Virus record (IMG/VR): IMGVR_UViG_3300042923_000644 | Span: 1 to 25,598 of that record | From: a virus | Direction: 5' to 3' (one strand) | DNA length: 25,598 bases | Shown here: positions 5 to 20,791 of the stretch, piece by piece | How positions within the stretch are numbered: the stretch's first letter is position 1 | Layout of the letters: the number at the start of each line of letters is the position of its first letter | Made by a program: the position numbers and the translations under genes | The notes under the pieces: generated by a model | Told to the model about the DNA's origin: nothing | Seen by the model: only the letters and a program-made list of their open reading frames with translations | The model's database searches: none

Positions 5-65
5 TGGTGCCGAGAAAGAGAATCGAACTCTTACTCCATCTCTGGAACCGGATTTTGAGTCCGGC
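5..65 (-). other. Prophage attachment site: 3' half of tRNA-Leu(CAA)
   Basis: Read on the minus strand this is the second half of a class II tRNA. It has an anticodon stem TCCGG/CCGGA (52-48 and 64-60) around loop CTCAAAA with anticodon CAA. A 15-nt variable arm follows with stem TCCA/TGGA, then a T arm AAGAG/CTCTT with loop TTCGATT, the acceptor strand TCTCGGC, discriminator A and CCA (7-5). The D arm and 5' acceptor strand are absent: the sequence beyond base 66 is AT-rich and unrelated. A 3' fragment without its 5' half is the usual scar where a tyrosine integrase has recombined into a tRNA 3' end. Orientation puts host DNA to the left and phage DNA to the right. It could also be the attP core if the window comes from a free phage genome. 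Confidence 0.8.
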
Positions 66-588: not shown

Positions 589-638
589 TGTTATATCAAT
601 AACATACCATATTAATGGCATCATTAAAATGCTATAAT
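589..638 (+). promoter_or_regulatory. Extended -10 promoter with upstream inverted repeat
   Basis: TGCTATAAT (630-638) is a perfect extended -10 element (TGn then TATAAT), placed about 30 bases before the start of the 115-codon gene. Upstream lies a perfect inverted repeat TGTTAT-ATCA-ATAACA (589-604), which could be an operator. No good -35 is seen, which is usual for extended -10 promoters. The same 14-bp block AAAATGCTATAATC recurs at 1005-1018. Confidence 0.55.
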
Positions 639-667
639 CTCGCAATCAGAACGAGAGGGTGCGTTGA

Positions 668-1015
668 GTGTTTGATAATTATTGGGAAAATAAGACAGAT
701 GAAGATATAAATAAAGAGCTTGAAACTCTTTATCATTCTTCAATATTTTCGTTAGGTACATCTTACTTGCATAAACTAGAAACCGCATATATTGATGATA
801 TCATTCAATGCATAGAGTCCAAGCGTTGTTTAACAAAAGCGAAGGTAAGAATTAGTTTTAAATATAATGATATGTGGAATGGCGGGATTGTTTTAAAAGT
901 ACCTGATCTTTTCATAACAAAAAAGCAAATTTTAGAAAGAAAAAATAAATTAATAGAACAAACCCCATATTGGCAAAATGTAATTAATGAAGCACAGCGT
1001 AGAAAAATGCTATAA
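668..1015 (+). CDS. Hypothetical protein, 115 residues
   Basis: I do not recognise this protein. It is 115 residues, soluble, rich in charged residues, with no signal peptide or membrane segment. The N-terminal part is acidic (ENKTDEDINKELETLYHSS) and the C-terminal third is helical and basic (KKQILERKNKLIEQTPYWQNVINEAQRRK). The start is a GTG at 668 with GAGAGGG about eight bases upstream; no ATG fits better. A clear extended -10 promoter precedes it, so it has its own transcription unit on the plus strand, apart from the virion genes. Its last codons contain the TGCTATAAT of the next promoter. Position near the att site and independent expression suggest a gene carried for the lysogen, function unknown. 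Confidence 0.6.
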   Translation: MFDNYWENKTDEDINKELETLYHSSIFSLGTSYLHKLETAYIDDIIQCIESKRCLTKAKVRISFKYNDMWNGGIVLKVPDLFITKKQILERKNKLIEQTPYWQNVINEAQRRKML

Positions 1016-1103
1016 TCAAGCGGCAGTAGCGGCGTTGAAAGCAGAAACGCATTTAGGGATAGATATCACTCCAAGTCCTGTGATGGGTAGTTCCGGAGCG
1101 TAG
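987..1103 (+). CDS. Possible 38-codon ORF overlapping the structured RNA
   Basis: ATG at 987 opens a 38-codon frame, one frame away from the end of the preceding gene, reading MKHSVEKCYNQAAVAALKAE and ending in GIDITPSPVMGSSGA. The composition looks protein-like, but no clear ribosome site precedes it. It runs through the -10 element at 1008-1016 and into the hairpin-rich stretch. It may be a real small protein, or chance reading of a structured RNA. Confidence 0.25.
   Translation: MKHSVEKCYNQAAVAALKAETHLGIDITPSPVMGSSGA
1008..1016 (+). promoter_or_regulatory. Extended -10 promoter of the candidate small RNA
   Basis: TGCTATAAT is a perfect extended -10 element overlapping the stop codon of the 115-codon gene. 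Transcription would start at about 1022-1024, exactly where the GC-rich, hairpin-forming stretch begins. The -35 region has no good TTGACA match. Confidence 0.55.
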
Positions 1104-1279
1104 CGTAAGTGATAGCCGGAGTAGCGCCCGGCCTACTGCTAGCAAAGAGGCTGATCACTGCGTAGCGGGGGTTGGCCTGATGCTTACTGTTTAGCTGATC
1201 TGCCAGCAGCATAAACTCTGCGTCAGTGTAGAAACAGTCCCGGCTCCGTCTCGCAAGAGGCGCAGCCAGCCTTATTTTT
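1022..1279 (+). ncRNA. Candidate structured small RNA, about 258 nt
   Basis: This stretch is visibly richer in G and C than its surroundings and has no long reading frame on either strand. It starts at the predicted start site of an extended -10 promoter and ends at a strong intrinsic terminator. Complementary pairs within it include GCAGTAG (1023-1029) with CTACTGC (1133-1139), TCCGG (1092-1096) with CCGGA (1116-1120), and ACTGTTT (1186-1192) with AAACAGT (1232-1238). The terminal hairpin closes on a GCAA tetraloop. The motif GTAGCG recurs three times (about 1099, 1121 and 1162). I see none of the signatures of tmRNA, RNase P, SRP RNA or a group I/II intron. A 38-codon frame enters its first third. 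No function can be assigned; a phage regulatory RNA is the simplest reading. Confidence 0.45.
1242..1279 (+). terminator. Rho-independent terminator with GCAA tetraloop
   Basis: Stem GGCTCCGTCTC (1242-1252) pairs with GAGGCGCAGCC (1257-1267), with one C-C mismatch, around GCAA (1253-1256). The T-rich run TTATTTTT (1272-1279) follows. It would end plus-strand transcripts from the promoter at 1008 before the lipoprotein gene. Confidence 0.65.
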
Positions 1280-1369
1280 AACGCACAGCTTTATCCACAA
1301 ATTCTGTGGATAAGTCTATCTAGCTTAATCACCTTTATTTGGAATATTCCCAGCGGATTCTAGGATTTT

Positions 1370-1378
1370 TGCTATACT
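1370..1378 (+). promoter_or_regulatory. Extended -10-like element before the lipoprotein gene
   Basis: TGCTATACT is one base from TGCTATAAT, the third such element in this plus-strand block. It lies only 7 bases before the AAGGAG ribosome site, so the leader would be very short. The -35 is not recognisable. Confidence 0.4.
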
Positions 1379-1397: not shown

Positions 1398-1562
1398 ATG
1401 AAACGGACTTTGATTTTATTGATTATTACTTTGCTTATGGCTGGCTGTGTGACGCAGGTTAATACCACCTCTCAGGCCAACAATCCCATCCCGATTGCTT
1501 CTACACAAAAGCCTTCACTTTTACCGAGCATTCTTAATTGGATTAAATGGCTGAGACCTTAA
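1398..1562 (+). CDS. Small lipoprotein, 54 residues
   Basis: A 54-residue protein with a textbook lipoprotein signal: MKR, a hydrophobic stretch TLILLIITLLM, then lipobox LMAGC with the modified cysteine at residue 17. The residue after the cysteine is Val, not Asp, which favours the outer membrane. The mature part is only 38 residues, with five prolines and a C-terminal SILNWIKWLRP. AAGGAG (1385-1390) sits seven bases before the ATG. It ends in a 4-base tail-to-tail overlap with the convergent membrane-protein gene. Short proline-containing lipoproteins in phages are often outer-membrane spanins (Rz1 type), but no inner-membrane spanin partner is adjacent, so a lysogen surface protein is equally possible. 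Confidence 0.65.
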   Translation: MKRTLILLIITLLMAGCVTQVNTTSQANNPIPIASTQKPSLLPSILNWIKWLRP

Positions 1563-2886: not shown

Positions 2887-3570
2887 TTAAGTTAATTTGC
2901 CTTTTGCGGGAAGGTTTGAGTGCATTGCGCCTGGTTGGGCTATCTCAAACCACACTGCGCCGTTTGTGTATGAATTGATGATTAGTCGTGCGAACTTATA
3001 AGCCTGTGGAATTGCGGTTGACTGTGTAGTTGTTTCTGAGGCAACATTTGGGTCGTTATAAATTCGGGTGGGTAATTCTGATTTAGCGTTTTGAAAAGTG
3101 TATTGAATGGTATAGTTAAGTGTTGAGCTTGTTTCTACATAAGCACCTAATCCTGGGGCAAAAAAGTCTCTCCAGCAGTCAATTTGACACCAAGGGGTTG
3201 CTGTTTGCGTTGTAATGCCAATGCTGATATCACCAGAGGCATCGTCAGAAATGCTAATGCCATTAGATTCAATTGATGAAAAAGGCACAGGAATAACTAA
3301 AGTTGTGGCATTTGGGCCAAGCACAGAGTAGGTGTATGTCAAGCCACTTAAGTCTTTACCAGTAAAGGTAAAAGTATTGCCACTTTCATCGGCCACTGCG
3401 GTTATTAGTAAAAATTGAGGCGTCGTATTTGCATATCTGCCATTACTCGTTAAAGCACCATCTAAGGCAATGTTACCAGCAGGATAAGTATCGGCTGTGA
3501 CCAAACCATCAGGATCAGCAGCATTTAAAGTAATTTTAATACTTTGGTCTAACTGGGTTTTGCTATACAT
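2887..3570 (-). CDS. Putative virion structural protein, 227 residues
   Basis: I do not recognise a named family. The protein is beta-rich, with many Thr, Ser, Asn and Ile residues, and contains DPDGLVTADTYPAGNIAL, GNTFTFTGKDLSGLTYTYSV and a Trp/Cys-containing centre (TPWCQIDCWRDFFAPGLGAY). There is no signal peptide or membrane segment. It is the first gene of a two-gene unit with the fibre-type gene 18 bases downstream, and the 16-bp late-promoter motif lies 57 bases before its ATG. Co-transcription with a fibre gene under the same motif as the head operon argues for a late virion role, such as a fibre-associated or baseplate-decorating protein. Confidence 0.55.
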   Translation of the reverse strand: MYSKTQLDQSIKITLNAADPDGLVTADTYPAGNIALDGALTSNGRYANTTPQFLLITAVADESGNTFTFTGKDLSGLTYTYSVLGPNATTLVIPVPFSSIESNGISISDDASGDISIGITTQTATPWCQIDCWRDFFAPGLGAYVETSSTLNYTIQYTFQNAKSELPTRIYNDPNVASETTTQSTAIPQAYKFARLIINSYTNGAVWFEIAQPGAMHSNLPAKGKLT

Positions 3571-17123: not shown

Positions 17124-19241
17124 CTAACTCTGCCCGTTAGAGGATGATTGCGCCTTTTCTGGCGGCTGCATTGCTACAGCGAGGTCTTTAACATTCTTAA
17201 AATGGGCTACATGGCTTGATGTCATATCGTTGTGATACTGCATCTGTGCTTTAGCGAGCTCTGCCGTTGTCTTGATCTGGTCTACCTTTCCATCGATCAA
17301 GGTTTGGATATAATCGACATCAGTCTTTTTGCTATCGTTTTGAATCTGCATAGCCTTGAGCTGGTTTTCAGCCGCGTTCTGTTGTGCTTCCATCTGAAGC
17401 TTTTGCTGTTCAAGCATGACTTGAGGTGGTGGAGGAGGTGGCGGAGGAGGTGGCTTACCATCTTCTTTAGCAATAATCTGAGGGGGGACTATTGCTTTAG
17501 CTCGCTCCACCAATTCAGGCATATTTGGCGCATTAGATAGGCCAAAGAGTTTGTCAGCGAAATAAGGGAATGCAGGAGCAGCAGAGGCTTGCAGAATGTC
17601 GAGAATGAATTGTCTTTCTTCCATGCGTTGCAGCTCATAGTTAGAGCCAACAGATACCATGACAGATAGGTCATCAGGCTTAATCTGGTTCTCAACTTGC
17701 ATTGTGTCTGGATTGAAATTATTGAGCTTGGCTCTATAAACTTTGTGCTGCTCAGCATAGAGATTCATTTCTCTTGGGCCGTCATAGAGATTATTGATAA
17801 GGTCGTTTGTGACAACTCCACCCTGTTCAATAGCTTTGTAGAGGCCATCCAAAAACTTGTTAACGAGAATGTTTTGCTGTCTCAAGCGGTTGGCAATAGC
17901 AACTCCTGAAACCTCAGGAGCAGCATCACCCATTGCAACTTCTGTGCGTCCTAATATGTCAGCCAGGTTATTACAGGCCACTTCAAAGGCTTGTAAGAGC
18001 TCAGGTGGAATAGGCACAGCCTCACGGAATATTGGAACGCCGCCAGGAACGGTAGGGTCGGGCTTAAATGGAACATAGCCCACAGGCTTTTCAGGGTTTT
18101 TGATGATATGAAGGCTGCCCTCAAACATCTTATGAGTGGCATATATAGTCTCTCTGCGATAGTTCTTAACGTGTTGGCATATTTCAGACCAGATAAAGTT
18201 AATTGAGCGCTGAGCATCAAAGGCATCATCAGTAATAGACTTAACAAACTGCTTACCGTTCAGCCAATAGCTATAGCCATCGACATATATGACGGGTAAG
18301 TGCCGGCCTGGGAAGTCATACTCTTCTAGGATTTCAACTTTGGTTAAACGAGTACAAGTAATGGTGTAATCATTAGCAGTCTTTCGGTCAATGATCTGAG
18401 GCAATGGGATACTGTCAGCAGGAATACCCATAGCGCTTGCCATCTGTTCAGCAGCTTCTTTGTATGAAGCTACATACTCTTCAAAGTCTTCTTCCTGGAT
18501 GACTTCATCTGGCTTGCCTGAAATGGTTGGGCTAACCTTAACCATTTTCTTTTTAAACCATTTCTTTTCGTAGATTTCAGCAACAGCTATAAGGGGTTCG
18601 CCATCATCGCCATTAGTTTCAGCAAGGGCTATTTCTTCTGAGTTGGTATCCCACTTTTCAGCAGTAGGTTCAGCATTAGGCCAATTCTTCTTGAATTCAC
18701 TTTGAACTAAATAGCTAATATCACCTGAATAATCACCGTCAGACTTTGTTTTGTTCTTAGCTTTGACATCCCAAAAGCAGAGTGTTGGCTCCTTTTTAGG
18801 CTCCATCATAACGTCTTGATCAAAGCTTGCTGCGCTTGAATAATCGGTGTAATACTTCAGCGCACCAAAGCCACCTTTAAGCGCACATTCAAAGGCAGTC
18901 TGATAGCATTCTTTGGCGTGGTTCTTGATCTGTATTGTGCGTAAGATATCGTTGCGTAAATTGATGCTCTCTTGGTTGGCTTCGTCTTTATCTACAACGA
19001 TTTGCATTTCAGGAGTAACAGATAGCTGTTCGCCAACAATCTGAGTGATAAACTTCTTGAGCAAGTTATGGCGCATCATAACTTTGCCGTTTTCAGTGTA
19101 GAAAGCGACAGTATCGCCATCCCACTGCTCGCCTTCATTAAAGGCTACGTTTTCATGATAATTGCTGATATTGTCCTGATAGTATTCATACCAGGCATCG
19201 ATCTTCGCATTGATCTTTTCAAGCTTCTTGGATGGTTTCAT
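17124..19241 (-). CDS. Portal protein, P22 gp1 family
   Basis: A 705-residue portal, close to P22 gp1 (725), which forms the dodecameric ring through which DNA enters and leaves the capsid and which docks the terminase. The N-terminal part has KINAKIDAWYEYYQDNISNY, NVAFNEGEQWDGDTV and the stem-region block RSINFIWSEICQHVKNYRRE. Residues near 410-440 (LADILGRTEVAMGDAAPEVS) match the helical core of this family. The C-terminus begins with ten consecutive prolines at 597-606 and continues as a Gln-rich helix (QVMLEQQKLQMEAQQNAAEN), the likely equivalent of the long helical barrel of P22 portal. Its ATG overlaps the terminase stop as ATGA, implying coupled translation. Confidence 0.85.
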   Translation of the reverse strand: MKPSKKLEKINAKIDAWYEYYQDNISNYHENVAFNEGEQWDGDTVAFYTENGKVMMRHNLLKKFITQIVGEQLSVTPEMQIVVDKDEANQESINLRNDILRTIQIKNHAKECYQTAFECALKGGFGALKYYTDYSSAASFDQDVMMEPKKEPTLCFWDVKAKNKTKSDGDYSGDISYLVQSEFKKNWPNAEPTAEKWDTNSEEIALAETNGDDGEPLIAVAEIYEKKWFKKKMVKVSPTISGKPDEVIQEEDFEEYVASYKEAAEQMASAMGIPADSIPLPQIIDRKTANDYTITCTRLTKVEILEEYDFPGRHLPVIYVDGYSYWLNGKQFVKSITDDAFDAQRSINFIWSEICQHVKNYRRETIYATHKMFEGSLHIIKNPEKPVGYVPFKPDPTVPGGVPIFREAVPIPPELLQAFEVACNNLADILGRTEVAMGDAAPEVSGVAIANRLRQQNILVNKFLDGLYKAIEQGGVVTNDLINNLYDGPREMNLYAEQHKVYRAKLNNFNPDTMQVENQIKPDDLSVMVSVGSNYELQRMEERQFILDILQASAAPAFPYFADKLFGLSNAPNMPELVERAKAIVPPQIIAKEDGKPPPPPPPPPPQVMLEQQKLQMEAQQNAAENQLKAMQIQNDSKKTDVDYIQTLIDGKVDQIKTTAELAKAQMQYHNDMTSSHVAHFKNVKDLAVAMQPPEKAQSSSNGQS

Positions 19242-20791
19242 ACTCTGCCGCTCCAGTTAGCTTCTTTGGTGAATAAATTGACGTTGTTATAGTCTTTGGT
19301 TAGGACGGATTCGCCATTGAGACCCAGGCACAGATATTGCAGAGCATCATGGATATGGGAGTTTTCGTTCTTGTCGGCAAAGTCGGCATATCTCACACCA
19401 TCGGCGCCAGCTATCATTTTGAAGTGATAGCCACCCAAAAACCCTTCACGCAGCAAAAAGCATTCAAGGCGATTAATAACAATGGCAGGTGAACCCATAG
19501 ACATCTTGTTCAGGGCTGCTTTAACTGCATCCCATCTAACAATTGGGTCGTTGCTGATACCAGCAGCTGGGTTAAAGTGATATTTCTCTAAAATAGAGAA
19601 GCAGCTCACGCCGTTAGACTGAGCATTGGTAATGCCTGAGGGATCTCCGAAGGTTGCTTTGACTTGCCACTTAGGACAGTAAGCATTGAGCCAAGGTATG
19701 ACTTGATTAGTAATAAGCTCTTCAAGGTTCATGTTCTCAGAGGTGAACTCTTTGAACACTTCGATCTTGCCGAGTGGGTTGTAGTGAGCTAATACAATGG
19801 CGGGTGTGTTGCCAAAGTCAGCTCCACAATAGATAGGCATGCCTTCGATATAGTTGATCTTATCGGCTGAATGAATATGATCGTTGTATTGTGGATAAAT
19901 GATCTTGCTGTCTTTATATGAGCCATACTCACCGAGACAAAACACTTTGATGAACTCATCATTAGCTCCAAGTGTCATCTTTTGGTAATAGTCTGGCGCT
20001 AAATTCTTCTTGTTATCGGCTTCTAAGTTATCAACCCATTCCCCGTTCTCATCTTTAACGAGTCCAGGCGGTTGTTTGAACATGACAAATTCGGGATGTT
20101 TTTCTTTCTCGAACATGCGATAAATCCATGAGCGAGTGTTAGGTGGGTTAGTATCTGCGATAATCCCTGTCCAGTAAGGCTCAGGGCATATCGACTTACT
20201 TGGATATCGTCCATTGATTCTTCCTTTCATGAACTGAAATACTGATTCTTGAAGTCCTGAAAGCTCATTAAGCCATGCACCTGTGAACTCAGCAGACTTA
20301 AGGCTTTCTAATTGGCCCGGTCTATCAAGTGCTAAGAAGATAATCTCAAGCTCACATTTGCCTTTATCATCGTAATATTCACAAAAGTAATAAGGCGGCT
20401 TTTGAGTGATGCGTACTTCACCAAAGTGTCTGAACCAATCAAGCCAGGTTTGCACTGTTGATATCTCAAGCATGCGATAGGTATTGCGGACAACGCACCA
20501 TTTAGCGCGTCTGGTGCCATCAATGCACTTTGGCATCTCACAAGTACGCTTTAATATTTCATGGCAGCAAGTGACGGATTTACCACTACCAAATGGCCCC
20601 ATGATCACTTTAAAAAAGCTGTCATCGCCATGAAACTGAATGCCAGTAGGGGAGGGCTTATAGAACCTGTTGTTTTTGTTTTGGGTGATAACATATCCGT
20701 CTGTTATCTGTACATCAGAAATTCGTGCGTCATTAGCGGTAAGTGATGCTCTGTAATTTCGCATCTCATCAAGCACTTTAGCGTAGGCCAT
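19238..20791 (-). CDS. Terminase large subunit
   Basis: A 517-residue packaging motor, similar in size to P22 gp2 (499). The ATPase domain has Walker A GPFGSGKS at 65-72, a Walker B-type strand FTGAWLNE ending in Glu176, and the coupling block GIIADTNPP at about 209-217. The nuclease domain has three acidic metal sites of the RNase H fold: Asp325 in GADFG, Asp383 in FGDPSG and Asp482 in HDALQYL. All catalytic positions are present, so the enzyme should be active. It hydrolyses ATP to pump DNA through the portal and cuts the concatemer. Its ATG overlaps the small subunit stop (TAATG) and its stop overlaps the portal start (ATGA), so the three are coupled. Confidence 0.95.
   Translation of the reverse strand: MAYAKVLDEMRNYRASLTANDARISDVQITDGYVITQNKNNRFYKPSPTGIQFHGDDSFFKVIMGPFGSGKSVTCCHEILKRTCEMPKCIDGTRRAKWCVVRNTYRMLEISTVQTWLDWFRHFGEVRITQKPPYYFCEYYDDKGKCELEIIFLALDRPGQLESLKSAEFTGAWLNELSGLQESVFQFMKGRINGRYPSKSICPEPYWTGIIADTNPPNTRSWIYRMFEKEKHPEFVMFKQPPGLVKDENGEWVDNLEADNKKNLAPDYYQKMTLGANDEFIKVFCLGEYGSYKDSKIIYPQYNDHIHSADKINYIEGMPIYCGADFGNTPAIVLAHYNPLGKIEVFKEFTSENMNLEELITNQVIPWLNAYCPKWQVKATFGDPSGITNAQSNGVSCFSILEKYHFNPAAGISNDPIVRWDAVKAALNKMSMGSPAIVINRLECFLLREGFLGGYHFKMIAGADGVRYADFADKNENSHIHDALQYLCLGLNGESVLTKDYNNVNLFTKEANWSGRV

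What the first reader, a model, noticed from the sequence alone, without database searches (positions are those of the whole stretch)
1008..1279. Candidate phage small RNA with its own promoter and terminator
A GC-rich, frame-poor stretch of about 258 nt begins at the predicted start of TGCTATAAT and ends at an 11-bp hairpin with a GCAA tetraloop and T run. Several complementary arms fold it into domains, one joining its first bases to bases 1133-1139. It matches none of the known RNA signatures I could test by eye.
Basis: partly seen in the sequence, partly recalled or inferred. Interest (0 to 1): 0.65.

Follow-up and report, generated by a model that had tools for sequence, protein, structure and literature searches.

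The report
Orphan prophage small-RNA candidate, unproven
Near one end of an unnamed prophage lies a short GC-rich stretch with no obvious protein, its own promoter and a strong hairpin at the end; it is probably a small regulatory RNA gene of an ordinary kind, but no relative of it could be found anywhere, so this remains unproven.

Summary
The anatomy is mostly as described. TGCTATAAT is at 1008-1016, and the following 262 nt are among the GC-richest of that length in the window (54% against 41%). No + strand frame of 20 codons or more lies inside. A stable hairpin (1242-1267, -16.7 kcal/mol) ends it, and 1022-1029 pairs with 1133-1140 (predicted P about 0.9). Three details weaken the reading. 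The hairpin has 10 pairs and a mismatch, not 11. Its T run starts 7 nt after the stem, so the terminator is imperfect. The body folds no better than shuffled sequence (z = -0.7).

No homologue was found in Rfam, phages, plasmids, E. coli, related phage records, 369 gammaproteobacterial genomes or 143 genomes of one further order, so covariation cannot be tested. The one close relative of the phage (G475) has a record that stops just before this place.

Two findings support an RNA gene. The same 14-nt promoter word starts the neighbouring cassette. In related phages GC-rich ORF-less gaps hold known RNA genes more often (4/18) than other gaps (1/75).

Best reading: a stand-alone noncoding cassette in the moron region of a prophage, probably a regulatory RNA (about 0.5); a new member of a known kind.

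The parts
5..65 (-). 3' part of a tRNA-Leu (anticodon CAA), probably the attachment site; the prophage extends to the right
   Evidence: up to 87% identical to complete tRNA-Leu genes of gammaproteobacteria, similarity ending at 65; ARAGORN finds no complete tRNA. That it is att is inference.
626..639 (+). promoter word AAAATGCTATAATC in front of the ORF 668-1015
   Evidence: identical 14-mer at 1004-1017
668..1015 (+). 115-aa ORF of unknown function, neighbouring cassette
   Evidence: no relatives
1004..1017 (+). extended -10 promoter AAAATGCTATAATC of the candidate RNA; no good -35
   Evidence: TGNTATAAT 3 times on + against 0.72 expected
1018..1279 (+). candidate noncoding RNA (transcript start probably about 1022-1025)
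   Evidence: GC-rich, ORF-less; no homologue
1022..1140 (+). 5' domain closed by 1022-1029/1133-1140
   Evidence: pair probability about 0.9; domain fold z = -1.4, not significant
1242..1279 (+). end hairpin 1242-1267 (GCAA loop) and T run 1275-1279; imperfect intrinsic terminator
1291..1313 (.). inverted pair of perfect DnaA boxes TTATCCACA-AATTC-TGTGGATAA just downstream; not shown to belong to the RNA
1370..1378 (+). TGCTATACT, promoter-like word of the next + strand cassette
1398..1562 (+). 54-aa lipoprotein, weak Rz1-like spanin match

Best explanation
The stretch 1018-1279 is a stand-alone noncoding transcription unit in the moron region of a tailed-phage prophage, between the tail genes and the tRNA-Leu attachment site. 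An extended -10 promoter, independent of the candidate late-gene motif, would keep it transcribed in the lysogen. Transcription stops at or just after the 1242-1267 hairpin, giving an RNA of about 250 nt whose ends are protected by the 5' domain and the hairpin. Most likely it acts in trans on host or phage mRNAs or on a host RNA-binding protein. Shown: sequence anatomy, GC enrichment, shared promoter word, hairpin. Inferred: transcription, termination, function.
For: GC content at the top of the window; highest GC excess by 150-nt window among 98 ORF-less gaps of 31 related phage records, second when scored by 100-nt windows. GC-rich gaps of those relatives hold known RNA genes (tRNAs, int-alpA) in 4 of 18 cases against 1 of 75 for other gaps. 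Exact 14-nt promoter word shared with the neighbouring cassette. Stable end hairpin. No + strand ORF of 20 codons inside. The candidate late motif AAAGTACCACTATGAA stands only before minus-strand operons.
Against: Fold not better than shuffles. No homologue at all, so no conservation or covariation. T run 7 nt from the hairpin. No convincing -35. No transcript data.
Confidence: 0.5

Rival explanations
1. It is GC-rich foreign or decayed DNA without an RNA function; the -10 word and the hairpin are fortuitous.
For: No homologue, no significant fold, ordinary lack of ORFs; imperfect terminator; orphan stretches are common in phage moron regions (general knowledge).
Against: Promoter word duplicated exactly at the neighbouring gene; strong end hairpin z = -3.6; GC-rich gaps in relatives are enriched for RNA genes.
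Confidence: 0.25
2. It is the structured 3' untranslated region of the 115-aa ORF's message, transcribed from the promoter at 626-639 to the hairpin; any short RNA is a 3'-UTR product.
For: No terminator was found between the ORF stop (1015) and 1242, and the promoter at 1004 overlaps the stop.
Against: The second, identical promoter word sits exactly at the stop; 260 nt is long for a 3' UTR (general knowledge).
Confidence: 0.2
3. The minus strand encodes a small protein (48 codons, 1066-1212, within a 74-codon stop-free frame).
For: Open frame, third codon position richer in GC (0.65 against 0.55 and 0.49).
Against: No Pfam, PHROGs or phage relative even at E 10; 17% of shuffles have as long an ORF; no Shine-Dalgarno seen.
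Confidence: 0.05

Closest known systems
Prophage moron-site sRNAs of E. coli O157 (EcOnc01/AgvB, EcOnc02; PMC4104026)
   Same: small noncoding units in prophages, several placed at a moron site; AgvB acts in trans on host RNA regulation
   Different: those are unusually short, Hfq-bound and shown by sequencing and Northern blot; this is about 250 nt, GC-rich and without expression data
Phage regulatory RNAs VpdS (VP882) and PreS (lambda), reviewed in PMC12197685
   Same: phage-encoded RNAs; the size here falls within the 50-550 nt range that the review gives for prokaryotic sRNAs
   Different: both act through Hfq on known targets; nothing of that is known here and no sequence relation was found in the phage collection
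int-alpA RNA (RF02996)
   Same: prophage sRNA in an ORF-less, GC-rich gap; a copy occurs in the related record G486
   Different: no match to this stretch; about 71 nt

Membership tests
Stand-alone bacterial or phage sRNA gene | own promoter | tested here: met
   extended -10 TGCTATAAT, 14-mer shared with neighbouring cassette; by sequence only, activity not shown
Stand-alone bacterial or phage sRNA gene | intrinsic terminator with U tract directly after the stem | tested here: inconclusive
   hairpin -16.7 kcal/mol, but T run 7 nt further on; alternative -12.7
Stand-alone bacterial or phage sRNA gene | discrete transcript | not testable with these tools
   no RNA data, host unknown
Structured RNA family | covarying or conserved stems | not testable with these tools
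   no homologue found; single sequence
Structured RNA family | fold more stable than dinucleotide shuffles | tested here: not met
   z = -0.71 whole, -1.41 and -0.63 domains
Any Rfam family (6S, tmRNA, int-alpA, etc.) | covariance-model match | tested here: not met
   no match at gathering score or at E 10
CsrB/RsmY protein-sponge RNAs | many A-N-GGA motifs | tested here: not met
   one ANGGA, three GGA in 262 nt
Type III toxin-antitoxin RNA | tandem repeats in the RNA | tested here: not met
   no tandem repeat
Retron or DGR RNA | reverse transcriptase gene next to it | tested here: not met
   neighbouring proteins match no reverse transcriptase

The most novel reading that the evidence does not exclude
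An undescribed class of structured prophage RNA carrying a repeated GUAGCG element (four copies; 0.7% of shuffles have any 6-mer that often) that binds a host protein or competes for host regulatory RNAs in the lysogen.
Probability: 0.1. Interest if true: 0.55.

Novelty: new member of a known kind. Interest (0 to 1): 0.27.

Why it matters
If real, it adds a noncoding gene to the moron region of a poorly sampled phage group whose nearest named relatives share at best about 36% of the terminase. Functions of many phage-derived sRNAs are unknown (PMC12197685). As it stands it is a candidate from one sequence and shows mainly how far composition alone can carry such a call.

Tried and rejected
Homologues of the RNA: blastn against phages, plasmids, E. 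coli; exact 20- and 21-mers in IMG/VR; blastn in related viral records, gammaproteobacteria (which scored only two candidates per genome, so weak for the RNA) and one further order; Infernal model R1 in 58 sources and 369 genomes: only chance matches. Neighbour proteins as bait: nothing. Host by tRNA-Leu: exact scan empty, best 87%; host not identified.

Considered and dropped: known Rfam RNAs, CsrB-like sponge, type III toxin-antitoxin RNA, retron (see membership test); antisense pairing to another part of the phage (longest complementary word 12 nt, as in shuffles). REP-like elements (GTAG next to GC hairpins): GTAG 6 times against 2.4 expected, p 0.011 for this word alone, and no copies elsewhere; not pursued.

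Full report
Setting. The window is a 25,598-base virus record. Its genes include a P22-type portal and a terminase, about 22% and at best about 36% identical to those of named phages. Bases 5-65 are the 3' part of a tRNA-Leu(CAA) on the minus strand, similar to complete genes in gammaproteobacteria up to base 65, so this end is probably the attachment site (inference). The late genes run on the minus strand from about 21.5 kb to 1.6 kb, with a few + strand ORFs at 3.8-5.0 kb between them. Between the late genes and the tRNA lie + strand units: a weak WGR-like 74-aa ORF, a 115-aa ORF, the candidate RNA, and a 54-aa lipoprotein.

The observation. TGCTATAAT lies at 1008-1016. The sequence AAAATGCTATAATC (1004-1017) is repeated exactly at 626-639, in front of the 115-aa ORF, and TGCTATACT stands at 1370, in front of the lipoprotein. 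So three successive + strand units have similar -10 words; none of them carries the 16-mer AAAGTACCACTATGAA that stands in front of three minus-strand operons. A -35 is not evident. The stretch 1018-1279 has 54% GC against 41% for the window and 25-31% just upstream. No + strand ORF of 20 codons or more lies wholly inside, but that is common in shuffled copies.

Structure. The hairpin 1242-1267 (-16.7 kcal/mol) beats all 200 shuffles of its 41-nt segment. It is followed by AGCCTTATTTTT, so the T run starts 7 nt after the stem; a stem placed next to the Ts is 4 kcal/mol weaker. As an intrinsic terminator it is plausible but imperfect. The pairing of 1022-1029 to 1133-1140 has predicted probability about 0.9. 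The whole and the two domains fold no better than shuffles. The apparent 'domains' are therefore what a GC-rich sequence gives by itself.

Search for relatives. Rfam: none. DNA similarity and exact words: none. Related phages were reached through the terminase. Only G475 is close (terminase 65%, portal 50%, gene order kept), and its record ends with a stop codon shortly before the place where the RNA would lie. An Infernal model of the sequence found only itself in 58 sources, and only chance-level scores in 369 gammaproteobacterial genomes. Blastn in 143 genomes of another order, guessed from gene content to be Legionellales, gave only two matches of 25 and 19 nt with per-genome E of 0.004 and 0.009, as expected by chance.

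An indirect test. I listed ORF-less gaps of at least 180 nt in 31 phage records (the window and 30 relatives). The window's gap has the highest GC excess over its genome when measured in 150-nt windows, and the second highest in 100-nt windows. In the other records, 4 of 18 GC-rich gaps hold a tRNA or the int-alpA sRNA against 1 of 75 other gaps. The tRNA scan covered all of these records; Rfam was run only on part of them, chosen partly because they held GC-rich gaps, so the numbers are a rough guide. They raise the odds of an RNA gene but do not prove one.

Conclusion. A stand-alone prophage RNA cassette is the best reading (0.5), ahead of nonfunctional GC-rich DNA (0.25), a 3' UTR of the 115-aa ORF (0.2) and a minus-strand small protein (0.05). 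What it does is inference: phage RNAs of comparable placement or size, such as those in PMC4104026 and PMC12197685, act on host RNA regulation. It is not filed under any known RNA family, since the family-specific features that could be tested were not met.

Noticed in passing
minus strand 21525-21510, 8041-8026, 3643-3628: The exact 16-mer AAAGTACCACTATGAA stands in front of three minus-strand operons (packaging, tail fibre, gene at 2887-3570): a candidate late promoter or activator box, absent from G475.
   Followed up: partly
1291-1313: Two perfect DnaA boxes in inverted orientation, 5 bp apart. The 27-mer TTATCCACAAATTCTGTGGATAAGTCT recurs between genes in many gammaproteobacterial genomes, in a few twice, and similar pairs occur in several related phage records. 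Function unknown; perhaps a DnaA-binding regulatory or titration site.
   Followed up: partly
window 19241-20791 and L225: Terminase large subunit: the N-terminal ATPase half is far more similar to that of G475 than the C-terminal nuclease half, as after a mosaic exchange.
   Followed up: no
L330:9646-9720: int-alpA sRNA (RF02996) in a related phage record, G486.
   Followed up: no
17401-17520: Most stable 120-nt fold in the window (z = -6.1 on +, -4.0 on -), inside the portal gene near its 3' end.
   Followed up: no
1026, 1100, 1121, 1162: GTAGCG occurs four times on the + strand of the candidate RNA; 0.7% of shuffles have any 6-mer that often.
   Followed up: partly
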